A stretch of DNA of 64,000 bases from Methylobacterium sp. 2A (GTDB lineage Bacteria; Pseudomonadota; Alphaproteobacteria; Rhizobiales; Beijerinckiaceae), in the NCBI RefSeq assembly GCF_009806555.1, contig NZ_VUOK01000062.1, positions 62,001 through 126,000 of the forward strand, read 5' to 3'. The notes under the pieces were generated by a model. It ran no database searches. It was not told the origin of the DNA and saw only the letters and a program-made list of their open reading frames with translations. A program made the translations under genes and the position numbers. The first letter of the stretch is position 1. Every line of letters begins with the position of its first letter. This document shows positions 1 to 5,016 of this stretch, piece by piece.

Positions 1-253
1 CGCCACGGCGACCACGATCGCCAGCGCGGTGGCGCAGCAGGGGGCGGCCACGCAGGAGATCGTCCGCAACGTCGCCCAGGCGGCGGCCGGAACCAGCGCC
101 GTCACGGCCAACATCACGGAGGTGGCCGGCGCGGCCGACGCGACCGGCGCGGCGGCCGGACAGGTGCTGCGCGCGGCCTCCGAGATGGCCGAGCAGGCGG
201 CCCGGCTCGGGAGCGAGGTCGAGCATTTTCTGGCGACCGTTCGGGCGGCCTGA
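1..253 (+). CDS. methyl-accepting chemotaxis protein, C-terminal end (partial)
   Basis: This is the last 83 or so codons of a chemoreceptor whose start lies left of the window. The reading frame is open from the first bases to TGA at 251-253. The visible residues ([20 protein letters not shown], then Ala-rich heptads ending EHFLATVRAA) are the returning arm of the cytoplasmic signalling coiled coil that relays ligand state to CheA/CheW. No C-terminal CheR-docking pentapeptide is present. The segment closely matches the end of the other receptor gene here (C-terminus at 2920), which lies in the opposite orientation. The stop is only 9 bp from the stop of the convergent jetB-like gene. Confidence 0.9.
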   Translation, partial: ATATTIASAVAQQGAATQEIVRNVAQAAAGTSAVTANITEVAGAADATGAAAGQVLRAASEMAEQAARLGSEVEHFLATVRAA

Positions 254-262
254 TCGGTCCGG

Positions 263-889
263 TCAGGCCTCCCCGGCCTCCGACCACGCCCGCAGGCGCT
301 CCAGCCACGCGTCGGAGGCCAGCACCACCACGCCGGGCAGCAGCGCGAGCGGCGTTACCCGCTCGACCCGGTCGCGCTCGCCGAGCCGCAGGCCGCCGCG
401 CCGCGCGTAGAGCCGCAGGATGTCGGCGAGCCGGCCCTCCTCGGGGGGCTCGTTGCGGGCGACCGTCCGGATTTTTTCCACGATCTCGTCGGTGGTGCAT
501 TCGACGATCCCGTCCGTGCCGACGCGGTGGTCGCGCAGGCCCTCCTCGTAGAGGAGCCGCAGCGCCAGCAGCACCAGGGTCTCGTCCTTGCGCAGGCGCT
601 CCGACATGATGTCGTGCCGCGGCGCGTCCGCGGCGGGGCTCAGCGAGACCATCTGGTCGCGGTGCGACACCGTCAGCGCGTAGCCCAGGCAGGCGAAGTA
701 ATCGGTGAAGAACGGCGCGTAGTGCCGGGCGAGCTCGTAGGAGCGGCCGATATTCGGTGTGTCGGCATAGATCACCTGCCCCTTCAGCAGGACCTGGAGG
801 GCGCGGCTGAGCTCTTCGGCGTCCGGCGCCCGGGCCCCGGGGGGCGCGGGCTCGTCGCCGTCGATGATGGCGCGGAAACCTTCAAGCAC
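263..889 (-). CDS. jetB: JetB-like (DUF4194) KITE subunit of a Wadjet/MksE-type SMC complex
   Basis: A 208-residue protein resembling the DUF4194/JetB family, the MukE/MksE-like winged-helix subunit that dimerises on the kleisin of Wadjet anti-plasmid complexes. Family-like features are the aromatic-rich YELARHYAPFFTDYFACLGY stretch (about residues 50-70), a following beta-strand region, and the conserved LRKDETLVLLALRLLYEE helix (about 100-117). The ATG overlaps the end of the upstream jetA-like gene by 8 bp, so translation is probably coupled. Known Wadjet operons continue with jetC (SMC ATPase) and jetD (TOPRIM nuclease). Here the next gene is a convergent chemoreceptor 9 bp away, so the pair is an orphan as far as the window shows. 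Family call is from motif memory; a plain MksE homologue is the alternative. Confidence 0.75.
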   Translation of the reverse strand: MLEGFRAIIDGDEPAPPGARAPDAEELSRALQVLLKGQVIYADTPNIGRSYELARHYAPFFTDYFACLGYALTVSHRDQMVSLSPAADAPRHDIMSERLRKDETLVLLALRLLYEEGLRDHRVGTDGIVECTTDEIVEKIRTVARNEPPEEGRLADILRLYARRGGLRLGERDRVERVTPLALLPGVVVLASDAWLERLRAWSEAGEA

Positions 890-2252
890 GGGGGCGCCGC
901 TCCAGCAGGAAATCCGGGCAGTCGAGCCAGCCGTTGGCGACGCGCTCAGGCAGGCGGGTGACGGCGTAGCGTTCGCCGAGCTTGGCGTCGAACAGCACGT
1001 CGATCTCGCGCAGACGCTGGAACACGATGAAGTCGTCGACGCCCGCGATCGTGATTTCCGACCCGCGCAGCCGCACCGCCTTGCCGAGGCGGGCCTCCAC
1101 GAAGGCCGTCATGCTCTCCGGCGTCACGGTGGTGCGGCGGCGGAACTCCGCCTTGGCGGCCGCGAAGGCGTCGACCACGGGATCGTCCTCGATGTCGGGC
1201 AGGGGTTCCATGTCGATCGCCGCCTTGCGCGCCCGCGGCATCTGGAGATGCGCGTGGCCGATCGGCGGGCGCAGCAGCGCGACATCGGTCGGCACGTCGG
1301 GGGCGATCTCGGAGCCGCCGACCGCGCGCAGCATCGCGGCGGCGCGCTCGACGCCGCCGGGATCCGGCCGGTCCATGACATGCAGGGCGGCGGCAATCCG
1401 GCGTTCCAGCCGCGCCACCACCGCATCGACCGCGTCGAGATGGTTGTCGAGCCCCTCGAACACCGTGAGGATCTGGGCGAGGTCGGCCCGCACCGCCCGC
1501 TGCGCGGCGTCGAGATCGGGGCTGCGGCCCTCGCGGATCAGGCCCTCGGCCAGCGCCCGAACCGTGAGGGCGTCGCGCAGGGCCCGGCCGGCCTCGCGGA
1601 CCACGCTGGCGCGGAAGCGGAACGGGTTGAAGCGCGTGTGCAGCGTCCGGTAGTCGCTGATCAGGTGGCGCTCGACGAAATCCTCGAAGAACAGCCGGAA
1701 GGTCTTGGCCCGGTCGGGCTCGCGCAGGATGCGCTCCTCGACCTTGCGCATGCCGGCGGCGAGGCCGCGCACATGCGCCAGGAAGGCGGCCGACGCCCGG
1801 GCTGCGTTGGCCAGGGCCTCGGAGCGGCTGCCGGGATCCGACAGGGCGCTCTCCAGCCCGCCCAGCACCTCCAGCACGGCGCCGCCGTAGGAGCGGGTCT
1901 CGCCCCGTTCGAGACGGGACAGTTCCTCGAGGAGGAGCCGCGCCTCGGGGTCGAACTCCACCACCGGCACGTAGCGCTCGCGGCGCTCGATCAGCCAGCC
2001 GGTGTCGAGCAGGCGGCGGTAGAGGGCGGTGCGGCGCTCCGTGGGATCGGCCGAGATCGGCTCGTCGCCGCTGACCTCGGGATCGCTCCAGCCCGCCGCG
2101 AAGTCGCCGATCTCGGCCAAAAGTTCGGCCTTGCGCACCGGCTCGGCCCCGAGGACGCGCCGGTGCAGGTGCAGCAGCAGGGCCGCGTTGAAGCCGCGGC
2201 TCGGGGAGGCCAGCGGCTTGAACAGCTCGTCGGGCAGCTGCGCGAACAGCAT
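882..2252 (-). CDS. jetA: JetA-like kleisin of a Wadjet/MksF-type SMC complex
   Basis: A 456-residue protein beginning MLFAQLPDELFKPLASPSRG, the pattern of Wadjet JetA proteins (an 'ipe.fF.lLAs' N-terminus), followed by a winged-helix segment with the typical LLDTGWLIERRERYVPVVEF motif near residues 85-105. The middle is long alpha-helix, as expected of a MukF/MksF-type kleisin that bridges SMC heads. The C-terminus is a small mixed domain. I chose ATG 2252 because everything upstream in the frame is antisense to other genes and the family motif starts here. It overlaps jetB by 8 bp and follows the FKBP gene by 35 bp on the same strand. No SMC (jetC) partner is visible. Confidence 0.75.
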   Translation of the reverse strand: MLFAQLPDELFKPLASPSRGFNAALLLHLHRRVLGAEPVRKAELLAEIGDFAAGWSDPEVSGDEPISADPTERRTALYRRLLDTGWLIERRERYVPVVEFDPEARLLLEELSRLERGETRSYGGAVLEVLGGLESALSDPGSRSEALANAARASAAFLAHVRGLAAGMRKVEERILREPDRAKTFRLFFEDFVERHLISDYRTLHTRFNPFRFRASVVREAGRALRDALTVRALAEGLIREGRSPDLDAAQRAVRADLAQILTVFEGLDNHLDAVDAVVARLERRIAAALHVMDRPDPGGVERAAAMLRAVGGSEIAPDVPTDVALLRPPIGHAHLQMPRARKAAIDMEPLPDIEDDPVVDAFAAAKAEFRRRTTVTPESMTAFVEARLGKAVRLRGSEITIAGVDDFIVFQRLREIDVLFDAKLGERYAVTRLPERVANGWLDCPDFLLERRPRA

Positions 2253-2287: not shown

Positions 2288-2716
2288 TTACTTCGCGCCG
2301 AGGAGTTCGACGTCGAAGATCAGTGTGGCGTTCGGCGGGATGACGCCGCCGGCGCCCCGGGCGCCGTAGCCGAGCTGCGGCGGGATGATCAGGGTGCGCT
2401 TGCCGCCCACCTTCATGGTGGCGACGCCCTCGTCCCAGCCCTTGATCACCTGGCCGGCGCCGAGGGGGAACGAGAACGGCTGGTTGCGGTCGCGGGAGGA
2501 GTCGAACTTCTTGCCCTTCTTGCCGCCCTCGTCGAGCCAGCCGGTATACTGGACGGTGACCTGCTGACCGGCCTTGGGCTCCGGCCCGGTCCCGACGACC
2601 TCGTCCTGATACTTCAGCCCGGAGGGCAGCGTGACGGTCTCGGCAGTGGCGGCAGTGCTGGCGGCAGTGCTCATGGCGATCAACGCGGCTCCGGCGATGA
2701 GGGACAGGCGAGGCAT
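2288..2716 (-). CDS. exported FKBP-type peptidyl-prolyl cis-trans isomerase
   Basis: A 142-residue periplasmic prolyl isomerase. Residues 1-25 form a signal peptide (hydrophobic core, then Ala-rich TAATA). The rest is a single FKBP domain: [18 protein letters not shown], the [16 protein letters not shown] motif, the [15 protein letters not shown] loop and [15 protein letters not shown] at the C-terminus, which together line the proline-binding pocket. It would catalyse cis-trans proline isomerisation during folding of exported proteins. The single-domain length matches the small FKBP class rather than the dimeric FkpA class. It lies 35 bp upstream of the jetA-like gene on the same strand and could share its transcript; a functional link is not evident. 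Confidence 0.93.
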
Positions 2717-2919: not shown

Positions 2920-5016
2920 TCAAGCCGCCTGGAGGCCGGCGAGGAAGCGCTCGACCTCGGTCGAGAGATAGTCGGATTGACGCGACAGCACGGACGCGTC
3001 GCCGAGCACATGCTCCGCCGCCCGCCCGGTTTCCTCGGCCGCACCCGCCACGCCGGCGATATTGTCGGTGACCTCCGCGGTGCCCTGCGCCGCCTGGCCG
3101 ACGTTGCGAACGATCTCCTGGGTCGCGGCGCCCTGCTCCTCGACCGCCGCGGCGATCGTGGCCGCCACCCCGTTGATCTCCTGGATCCGCGCCGTGATCG
3201 CGCCGATCGCCGACACCGCCTGCCCCGTGGAGGTCTGCACCCGGGCGATCTGATCGGCGATCTCCTGTGTGGCCCTGGCGGTCTGCTCGGCCAAAGCCTT
3301 CACCTCGCTCGCCACCACCGCGAAGCCGCGGCCCGCCGCGCCGGCGCGCGCCGCCTCGATGGTGGCGTTGAGCGCCAGCAGGTTCGTCTGGCCCGCGATG
3401 GTCGAGATCAGGCCGACCACGTCGCCGATCCGCGCCACCGCGCCGCTCAGCTCCTGCACCAGCGACGCGGTCTGGTCCGCCTCGGAGGCGGCCGCCTTCG
3501 CGAGTTCCGCCGACCCCTGCACCTGCCGGCCGATCTCCAGCACGGAGGTCCCCAGCTCCTCCGCGGCGGCCGCCACGGTGCTGACGTTGCCGGCCGCCTG
3601 TTCGGCCGCGGCCGCGACGGTGGTCGACCGGGCGGCAGTCTGGCCCGCCGTGGTCGTCATGCTCTGCGCGGTCACCTGCAGCTTGGAGGCCGAGCCCGAA
3701 ACCTGCCCGATAATGTCGCCGACGGCGGCCTTGAAGGCGTCGGCCAGCTGGCGCATCCCGGTCCGCCGCTGGTCTTCGGCGGCGTGCCGCGCCGCCTCCG
3801 CCTCCGCCTCCAGGGTCCTGGTGCGGATCAGGTTCTCCTTGAACACCTGGACGGCGGACACGATCGGGCTGAACTCGTTCCGGTAGGCGCGCACCGGCAC
3901 CTCGACCGCCGTGTCGCCCGCCGCCAGGCGCCGCATGGTCGTCGAGATCGTCCGGATGGGTCGCAGCACCCCGCCGAACAGGCAGAGCAGTCCGAGGGCC
4001 ACGAGAAGCGTCACGGCGAGCAGGGCGGCGGCGTTCCGGATGAGGGTCGCCTGGGCCTCGGAGGCCAGGGTCTCGGCACGCGCCACCATCGCGTCGAGGG
4101 ACGCGTAGGCGAGGTCGACGATCGTCATCTGATCGACGGAGTTGCGCCGCCGGAGTTCCTGGAACGTGTAGGGCAAGGCCGTCCGCTGGCTCAGCGCATC
4201 GAAGACCGCTCGGGCCATCCGAATGGGTTCGTCGTCGAAGTTGCTGGCCTTGGCTTTCAGGAAGGCGGCCCCCACGGGACCCGAGACGCCGGAGGCGGCC
4301 TCGGTGGTGGCCGTCCAGGCGGTCTGAACCCGGGCACGCTCCTCGGCGGCCGCGACGATCTCGGGCAGGGACCATGTGGTCCCGGCCGCGAGGGAGGTCT
4401 GCACCCGCAGGGCGACGTTCCCGATCGCGATCCGGGTCGCCCAGGCCGCGCGCTTGAGCGCGAGGTAGCGCTGCAGCACCGCGTCTGCGCGCGGGATGGC
4501 GGCCTCCACGGCGTCCATCGTGCCGGTCAGCGCGTCGAGCAGATCCTGGAAGGCCGCCAAGGTGGCGGGAAGGAGCTTCGGATCACGCTGCGCCTTCGAC
4601 ACGCGCAAGGCTTCGTCGATCCTGGGGCGGAGGGCCTGCATGGCCTCCTGCGCGGCGTTCAACCGGCCGAGCGTCGCCGACACGCTCGGCACGTCCAGGG
4701 CGCCCAGAAGGTCGCGGGCCGTTCGGAAACTCGCGCGCATCGCCTCCCGGCTCGTCGCGATCCCGGAGAGGATGTCGGGTTCCGCAGCGCCTTCCCCGCC
4801 GAGGGCCAGGGCTGCGCCCCGCTCGAGGCGCAGCGGCAGGATGGTCTTCAGCAGAGCCCGGCTCGCTTGCGCCAGCGTGACGGCTTCCGTCGCTTCGCGG
4901 GCCTGCATGCGCGCCTCGACCAGGGAACCCGTCGTATGAGCCAGCAACATCAGTGCCATCGCGAATATTGCCGCGCACATGGTCGCACGGATCGACAATT
5001 TTCCAAGCACGTTCAT
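2920..5016 (-). CDS. methyl-accepting chemotaxis protein
   Basis: A 698-residue transmembrane chemoreceptor. One membrane segment sits near residues 8-28, followed by a roughly 300-residue helical periplasmic sensor region. A second membrane segment lies at about 327-348, then a HAMP linker ([25 protein letters not shown]). The rest is the cytoplasmic signalling coiled coil. Its hairpin tip contains [19 protein letters not shown], the region that contacts CheA and CheW. The C-terminus ([11 protein letters not shown]) has no CheR-tethering pentapeptide. The sensor ligand cannot be predicted. The gene is monocistronic, preceded by about 280 bp of non-coding DNA. Its last about 70 codons resemble those of the receptor at the left edge. 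Confidence 0.95.

What the first reader, a model, noticed from the sequence alone, without database searches (positions are those of the whole stretch)
263..2252. Orphan Wadjet-like jetA-jetB pair without jetC and jetD
Two overlapping genes look like the kleisin (JetA) and KITE (JetB, DUF4194) subunits of a Wadjet/MksBEF-type SMC complex. In known systems jetC (SMC ATPase) and jetD (TOPRIM nuclease) follow directly. Here jetB ends 9 bp from a convergent chemoreceptor gene, so the ATPase and nuclease are absent from this locus. The pair may be a remnant, may work with a distant SMC, or may be a kleisin-KITE module with a new role. The FKBP gene upstream might be part of the unit.
Basis: partly seen in the sequence, partly recalled or inferred. 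Interest (0 to 1): 0.72.

Follow-up and report, generated by a model that had tools for sequence, protein, structure and literature searches.

The report
Nuclease-free Wadjet complex in Methylobacterium
Most Methylobacterium genomes examined, including this one, carry a complete Wadjet DNA motor without its DNA-cutting subunit and seem to have lost the usual chromosome-folding SMC complex, so a former anti-plasmid weapon may have taken over chromosome folding.

Summary
The two genes are real: window 882-2252 (-) is JetA and 263-889 (-) is JetB. The pair is not an orphan. jetC, an intact 1,145-aa SMC ATPase, lies just outside the window, beyond an opposite-strand chemoreceptor. jetD was not found in any of 111 genus genomes. 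JetA and JetC occur in the same 91 of 111 genomes and are under purifying selection; in 15 of 91 they lie apart.

The surprise: the 20 genomes lacking JetABC mostly carry Smc-ScpAB (ScpA 17 of 20; SMC hinge 15 of 20). JetABC carriers do not (ScpA 1 of 91, probably a contaminant). At the ancestral dsbA-smc-atpI site, smc is cleanly gone in this genome (189-bp gap) and in nine other loci; it is present in JetABC-minus genomes and in outgroups.

Best reading: a Wadjet that lost its nuclease replaced Smc-ScpAB as the chromosomal condensin, in parallel to MukBEF. Sequence evidence only; the scpAB site was not located here, and it is essentially one evolutionary switch.

The parts
882..2252 (-). jetA: kleisin subunit (456 aa)
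   Evidence: PF18982 E 2.3e-66; PADLOC JetA1 731 bits; the best PDB matches of a low-confidence model are chains of Wadjet and MukBEF structures
263..889 (-). jetB: KITE subunit (208 aa, GTG start, overlaps jetA by 8 bp)
   Evidence: PF13835 E 1.9e-19; PADLOC JetB1 379 bits; the best PDB matches of the model are chains of Wadjet JetABC and MukE-MukF structures
1..253 (+). 3' end of a chemoreceptor gene (C65:60547-62253) inserted between jetB and jetC; it hides jetC, which lies outside the window at C65:56966-60403, minus strand (L002:4966-8403)
2288..2716 (-). FKBP-type peptidyl-prolyl isomerase, upstream neighbour; not a conserved part of the complex
   Evidence: PF00254 E 3e-38; directly upstream of jetA in 11 of 20 same-genus loci

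Best explanation
jetA, jetB and the nearby jetC encode a complete type I Wadjet SMC motor (kleisin, KITE, SMC ATPase) that has lost its nuclease JetD. It has taken over chromosome folding and segregation from Smc-ScpAB in most of the genus Methylobacterium. Shown by sequence: three intact subunits here, JetD not detectable genus-wide, purifying selection, perfect co-occurrence of JetA and JetC, near-complementary distribution with ScpA and SMC, and a clean absence of smc from its ancestral site in this genome. Inferred: that JetABC loads on the chromosome, extrudes loops, and acts as the sole condensin, with no cleavage at the end of extrusion because JetD is absent.
For: Identity and intactness; Walker A, signature and Walker B motifs all found in 52 of 55 jetC loci. 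JetD: 0 of 111 by PF09983. With a profile of six alphaproteobacterial JetDs the best genus hit is E 3.6e-4 in a 42-aa frame. A JetD HMM finds JetD in the Microvirga, Erythrobacter and Azospirillum loci and in no other of 40 loci. Conservation: JetA and JetC in the same 91 of 111 genomes; median dN/dS 0.24-0.33. JetA and JetC distances correlate, also for genomes where the genes lie on different contigs or far apart (rho 0.80 for 111 pairs, 0.90 for all 231). Replacement: ScpA in 17 of 20 JetABC-minus against 1 of 91 JetABC-plus genomes. SMC_hinge over the curated cut-off in 13 genomes, all JetABC-minus; two more JetABC-minus genomes fall just under it (E 0.0033) with SMC-sized frames; no JetABC-plus genome has a match below E 0.017. 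smc sits at dsbA-smc-atpI in 11 of 11 JetABC-minus loci read. smc is missing there in the window's genome, in M. bullatum on the same record as JetABC, and in eight further named loci whose JetABC status was not tested. No SMC match at E <= 1e-5 on the 2.83-Mb M. bullatum record. [quoted passage not shown]
Against: No experiment. The switch is probably one event on one branch, so 91 against 20 genomes are not independent cases. The SMC_hinge and ScpA profiles score this genus weakly and miss some JetABC-minus genomes (5 and 3 of 20), so absence by profile alone is not proof; ScpB was not tested genus-wide. The scpAB site was not located in any JetABC-plus genome; in the window's genome serS-surE was found without the argS-nagZ-scpAB-tat block beside it. 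G004 and G032 show neither system. One JetABC-plus genome (G023) has SMC and ScpA, though its SMC is only 35-47% identical (best segments) to Hyphomicrobiales SMCs, away from atpI, in an assembly with 4% contamination. A few jet genes are broken: G047 jetA in two frames, G066 jetC with one stop, G103 jetC near its N-terminus.
Confidence: 0.74

Rival explanations
1. JetABC is still a defence or plasmid-control complex. It restricts plasmids by extrusion or sequestration alone, or with an unrelated nuclease encoded elsewhere. The loss of smc is a separate event.
For: The closest relatives are type I Wadjet proteins. Two JetD-less relatives lie on plasmids. A non-homologous nuclease cannot be excluded by homology searches.
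Against: JetA occurs in 91 of 111 genus genomes (a single match in 89 of them), always with JetC. In the order sample of 397, only 7 genomes outside the genus have JetA over the cut-off, and 6 of those have JetD. The genes downstream of jetC differ between the five clades inspected, so no linked replacement effector is apparent. Presence is near-complementary to Smc-ScpAB.
Confidence: 0.13
2. Decaying remnant of a Wadjet locus that lost jetD and is drifting.
For: jetD is gone; the operon is interrupted by a chemoreceptor here, and jetA and jetC lie apart in 15 of 91 genomes; a few copies are broken.
Against: The genes read are mostly intact with dN/dS well under 1. Neither JetA nor JetC was found without the other in 111 genomes, even where they are far apart.
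Confidence: 0.03
3. JetABC is an accessory condensin beside a very divergent SMC-ScpAB, or beside another undetected complex, that does the housekeeping work.
For: Profile sensitivity for SMC_hinge and ScpA in this genus is modest, and the scpAB site was not located in a JetABC-plus genome.
Against: smc is physically absent from its ancestral site in ten loci, two of which (window genome, M. bullatum) are shown to carry JetABC. There is no SMC match on a 2.83-Mb M. bullatum record by tblastn with a JetABC-minus SMC. JetC is the only strong AAA_29 match with an SMC-sized frame in this genome; the only longer frame proved to be an SbcCD-like locus. AAA_29 is weak on canonical SMC (17 bits), so this speaks mainly against a second MukB/JetC-like protein.
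Confidence: 0.1

Closest known systems
Wadjet type I (JetABCD / EptABCD / MksBEFG)
   Same: JetA, JetB and JetC families, gene order A-B-C, ATPase motifs
   Different: No JetD detected genus-wide; in 91 of 111 genomes of one genus instead of sporadic; often interrupted or split
P. aeruginosa-type MksBEF without the nuclease
   Same: Kleisin-KITE-SMC complex without JetD; review PMC10586767 (passages) reports a role in chromosome organisation and likely origin by JetD loss
   Different: Here the proteins match JetA, JetB and JetC (type I Wadjet), and JetB matches Pfam MksE only below its cut-off. MksBEF in P. aeruginosa coexists with SMC (start of abstract of PMC7485682 in the listing); here SMC is missing
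MukBEF of enterobacteria
   Same: A Wadjet-like kleisin-KITE-SMC complex present where Smc-ScpAB has been lost (PMC10586767, passages)
   Different: A different sequence family and an independent lineage (Alphaproteobacteria)
JetABC without JetD on Rhizobium leguminosarum TP16 plasmid pRlX5 and on a Salipiger sp. CCB-MM3 plasmid
   Same: Closest relatives found outside the genus: JetA 44%, JetB 49%, JetC 40% for pRlX5; no JetD detected; pRlX5 is sister to the Methylobacterium clade in both trees
   Different: Plasmid-borne, single records

Membership tests
Wadjet type I (JetABCD) | JetA kleisin | tested here: met
   PF18982 E 2.3e-66, JetA1 731 bits
Wadjet type I (JetABCD) | JetB KITE (DUF4194) | tested here: met
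   PF13835 E 1.9e-19, JetB1 379 bits; best model match is a Wadjet JetABC chain
Wadjet type I (JetABCD) | JetC SMC ATPase with Walker A, signature and Walker B | tested here: met
   JetC1 2,051 bits; motifs GPTGAGKS, SGGE, LLDEA in 52 of 55 loci
Wadjet type I (JetABCD) | JetD TOPRIM-type nuclease | tested here: not met
   0 of 111 genomes; only fragments with the alphaproteobacterial profile; none in the Methylobacterium jet loci read
Wadjet type I (JetABCD) | Restriction of circular plasmids by cleavage | not testable with these tools
   needs an experiment
MksBEF / MukBEF | MksE/MukE and MksF/MukF sequence families | tested here: not met
   JetB hits MksE at 22.6 bits, below the 27-bit cut-off; JetA hits only the JetA family
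MksBEF / MukBEF | Kleisin-KITE-SMC complex without an associated nuclease | tested here: met
   No JetD homologue; an unrelated nuclease partner is not excluded
MukBEF-like replacement of Smc-ScpAB | Smc-ScpAB absent from the genome | tested here: inconclusive
   smc gone from its ancestral site in this genome; no ScpA or SMC-hinge match in it; ScpB untested, scpAB site not located
Smc-ScpAB | SMC hinge and ScpA/ScpB partners | tested here: not met
   JetC has no SMC_hinge match at E <= 0.01; no ScpA match in the genome

The most novel reading that the evidence does not exclude
A nuclease-free type I Wadjet, whose nearest relative found sits on a Rhizobium plasmid, displaced Smc-ScpAB after Methylobacterium group C split off. 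It is now the only and probably essential chromosome-folding SMC complex of groups A, B and D, the group of the laboratory species M. extorquens included: a second, independent conversion of a defence-type SMC into a housekeeping condensin, young enough that the old smc site and the parent family are still recognisable.
Probability: 0.58. Interest if true: 0.85.

Novelty: new variant of a known kind. Interest (0 to 1): 0.76.

Why it matters
One review suggests that MukBEF and likely MksBEF arose from Wadjet-like defence complexes, MksBEF by loss of JetD (PMC10586767, passages), but I know of no case where the old and new states are both still visible among close relatives. Here both can be read within one genus: some genomes keep Smc-ScpAB without JetABC, the others have JetABC without detectable SMC. 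If JetABC is their condensin, it makes the defence-to-housekeeping route directly testable in a genus that includes a model laboratory species, and asks how a complex evolved to find small circles became safe and useful on a chromosome. It also warns that defence-finding pipelines may read these genes as an incomplete defence system.

Tried and rejected
Rejected: 'jetC absent'. 'FKBP is part of the unit': next to jetA in only 11 of 20 loci. A longer AAA_29 frame at C67:219721 as a hidden SMC: it is an SbcD-like gene followed by a YhaN/SbcC-like ATPase, named from recall of the sequence. Tat locus on NZ_CP099613.1 as evidence for a missing scpAB: the record is a repABC plasmid, so its tatABC says nothing about the chromosomal site; dropped. 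A Fisher test on 91 against 20 genomes was not run because the genomes share one history.

Led nowhere: solved-structure search with the JetA and JetB sequences (no relevant match). AlphaFold models of JetA (12 sequences, mean pLDDT 63) and JetB (10 sequences, 74) are weak; their best PDB matches are chains of Wadjet and MukBEF/MukE-MukF structures (E 2.7e-7 and 9.8e-8), but with low TM-scores (0.13-0.39 for the top rows). Literature: MksBEF with Methylobacterium 0 papers; Wadjet with Methylobacterium 3 papers, none on this by title and start of abstract; Methylobacterium with chromosome segregation, ScpA and SMC 0 papers; searches listed nothing on it, some of them capped lists. The library holds only open-licence papers. 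From on I read search listings; I read passages only of PMC10586767, PMC10123090, PMC9364378, PMC4255302 and PMC10512200.

Full report
WHAT IS THERE. Window 882-2252 (-) encodes a 456-aa protein matching Pfam JetA (E 2.3e-66) and PADLOC JetA1 (731 bits). Window 263-889 (-), overlapping it by 8 bp, encodes a 208-aa protein matching DUF4194 (E 1.9e-19) and PADLOC JetB1 (379 bits). The stop of jetB is 9 bp from the stop of a convergent chemoreceptor gene. In the genome (G000, contig C65; window base 1 = C65:62001) the chemoreceptor spans C65:60547-62253. Immediately beyond it, on the strand of jetA and jetB, lies jetC (C65:56966-60403, 1,145 aa). jetC matches AAA_29, SbcC_Walker_B and PADLOC JetC1 (2,051 bits), and its only matches among solved structures at E <= 0.001 are three JetC chains. 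The next gene beyond jetC is an unrelated amine-oxidase-like gene on the other strand (named from recall of the sequence). No JetD was found in the genome.

JETD IS MISSING FROM THE GENUS GENOMES SEARCHED. In 111 same-genus genomes, JetD_C (PF09983) gave 0 hits. A profile of six alphaproteobacterial JetDs (A1) gave 23 of 111 genomes with a match at E <= 1. All are fragments; the best is E 3.6e-4 in a 42-aa frame. In an order-wide sample of 397 genomes, JetA was over the cut-off in 15: eight of the genus and seven outside it. Six of the seven have JetD (G145, G160, G186, G354, G455, G467), five of these about 5 kb from JetA on the same contig. The seventh (G280) has only a JetA fragment. An HMM of eight JetDs run over 6,381 frames of 40 loci found JetD (E <= 1) only in the Microvirga, Erythrobacter and Azospirillum plasmid loci. 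The first two were in the HMM; the Azospirillum one was not, and scored E 2.3e-76. The Methylobacterium loci, the Rhizobium leguminosarum plasmid and the Salipiger plasmid had none.

JETABC IS KEPT AS A UNIT. JetA and JetC occur in exactly the same 91 of 111 genomes. jetC lies downstream of jetA on the same strand within 1.5 kb in 28, within 1.5-4 kb in 34 and within 4-16 kb in 14. In 15 the two are apart: 14 on different contigs, some of which may be assembly breaks, and G042 2.5 Mb apart in one contig. JetB was not searched genus-wide; a match lies within 1.5 kb of jetA in 26 of 32 short loci, and in G042 and G021 it lies beside jetC instead. Distances between JetA sequences and between JetC sequences correlate (22 genomes, 231 pairs, rho 0.90; 111 pairs involving one of six genomes where the genes are apart, rho 0.80). 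Median pairwise dN/dS (Nei-Gojobori, no correction for codon bias) is 0.33, 0.32 and 0.24 for JetA, JetB and JetC (51, 23 and 55 sequences). All three ATPase motifs were found in 52 of 55 jetC loci; 60 were tried, five gave no full frame (in three of these jetC lies elsewhere), and some genomes are counted twice. Exceptions: G047 jetA lies in two frames, G066 jetC has one stop, and G103 jetC is broken near its N-terminus.

SMC-SCPAB IS NOT FOUND WHERE JETABC IS PRESENT. ScpA (PF02616) was found in 18 of 111 genomes: 17 of the 20 without JetABC and one of the 91 with it. SMC_hinge was over its curated cut-off in 13 of 111 genomes, all of them among the 20. Two more of the 20 (G050, G051) lie just under it (E 0.0033) in frames of 1,184 and 1,156 aa. 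Among the 91 the best match is E 0.018, in a 488-aa frame with a stop. So 18 of the 20 show SMC or ScpA; G004 and G032 show neither. The one double genome, G023, has an SMC whose best segments are only 35-47% identical to the Hyphomicrobiales SMCs compared, whereas the SMC of JetABC-minus G071 is 52-62% identical to the same set. It is not next to atpI, and its ScpA is not next to nagZ or tatA; the assembly has 4% contamination, so these are most likely foreign contigs. JetC itself has no hinge match at E <= 0.01.

THE ANCESTRAL SITES. In JetABC-minus genomes smc lies between dsbA and atpI in 11 of 11 loci read (of 15 found), and scpAB lies between nagZ and tatA in 7 of 7 read (of 17 found). 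The 3' part of smc is present upstream of atpI at the contig ends of M. aquaticum and M. ajmalii. In eight named loci dsbA runs straight into atpI: Methylobacterium jeotgali, dankookense, gnaphalii, sp. J-030, sp. E-066, sp. C25, MAG RYN_510 and the Beijerinckiaceae MAG M12. Whether these eight carry JetABC was not tested. In many other Hyphomicrobiales (for example Mesorhizobium, Bradyrhizobium) smc is simply not near atpB, so those loci are uninformative. In M. bullatum record NZ_LR743510.1 the same record carries JetABC and the smc-less site, with no SMC match at E <= 1e-5 on its 2.83 Mb. M. aquaticum record NZ_AP014705.1 carries atpB with smc and no JetC match; it is one 1.57-Mb record, not the whole genome. 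In the window's own genome the site was found on contig C67: dam, mutY, DUF721, dsbA, a 189-bp gap, then atpI, atpB, atpE, atpF, with no smc (L308). The dsbA-atpI gap is 167-233 bp in ten smc-less loci and 3,683-3,827 bp in three loci with smc. The corresponding scpAB site was not found in the window's genome: serS-surE is on C17 without the argS-nagZ-scpAB-tat block beside it.

WHO HAS WHICH. Paper PMC9364378 (passages) places group C (M. aquaticum, M. ajmalii, M. nodulans and others) at the root of Methylobacterium, apart from groups A (M. jeotgali), B (M. extorquens) and D (M. bullatum). The named loci fit this: smc in two group C species, no smc in M. jeotgali (A) and M. bullatum (D). That the window's genus is Methylobacterium, that the 20 unnamed JetABC-minus genomes are group C (AtpB of one, G071, is 100% identical to M. 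aquaticum), and that M. extorquens has JetABC are inferences.

ORIGIN. In trees of JetC and of JetA (18 rows each) the Methylobacterium proteins form one clade. Its sister is the JetD-less JetABC of R. leguminosarum plasmid pRlX5 (support 100/99 for JetC, 97/97 for JetA). Next comes a pair of the JetD-less Salipiger plasmid system and JetD-bearing G467. JetD was therefore probably lost before or around entry into Methylobacterium. The tool warns of long branches, the Salipiger-G467 pair among them, so the deeper order is unsure, and transfer from a plasmid is only a possibility.

MECHANISM. Most likely JetABC works as a loop-extruding condensin on the chromosome. [quoted passage not shown] Without JetD the same motor could fold DNA without cutting it. 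Supported by sequence: the parts, their conservation and the loss of the competing system. Inferred: loading on the chromosome, extrusion, and sole responsibility for segregation. Alternatives are a non-cutting plasmid-control role, an unknown effector, or an undetected second condensin.

NOVELTY. The principle (JetD loss giving a chromosome-organising complex; MukBEF replacing Smc-ScpAB) is in print. I found no paper describing it for Methylobacterium or for a type I Wadjet as the apparent only condensin (searches; open-licence library only, some lists capped). It is filed as a new variant of a known kind.

Noticed in passing
L277:3451-9465 (Rhizobium leguminosarum TP16 plasmid pRlX5): Plasmid-borne JetABC without a detectable JetD, sister to the Methylobacterium complex; could be a plasmid's own condensin.
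   Followed up: partly
L278:2964-8423 (Salipiger sp. CCB-MM3 plasmid): Another plasmid JetABC with no JetD detected; placed apart from the Methylobacterium clade, so possibly an independent loss.
   Followed up: partly
L176, L183 (G023 contigs C20 and C4): SMC and ScpA far from the Hyphomicrobiales relatives compared, in an assembly with 4% contamination; probably foreign contigs.
   Followed up: yes
L280, L276 (NZ_LR743510.1): A 2.83-Mb record labelled 'plasmid 1' of M. bullatum carries ATP synthase F0 genes, so it is probably chromosomal.
   Followed up: no
L281, L314 (NZ_CP099613.1): A repABC plasmid of a leaf Methylobacterium carries its own tatABC genes beside a Tad pilus cluster.
   Followed up: no
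L119 (G047 jetA), L100/L054 (G066 jetC), L099/L051 (G103 jetC), L178 (G105 smc): Isolated frame breaks or stops in jetA, jetC or smc; sequencing errors or true lesions not distinguished.
   Followed up: no
window 1-253 and 2920-5016: Chemoreceptor genes flank the jetA-jetB/FKBP block on both sides; a chemoreceptor between jetB and jetC is shared by 9 of 20 fetched same-genus loci.
   Followed up: partly
L300 (G000:C17:1-20000): serS-surE is separated from the argS-nagZ-scpAB-tat block that adjoins it in JetABC-minus loci such as L181 and L182; the tat block was not located in this genome.
   Followed up: partly
L112 (G280:C125): A lone JetA fragment (193-aa frame) with no JetB or JetC match nearby; looks like a true remnant of a Wadjet system.
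   Followed up: no
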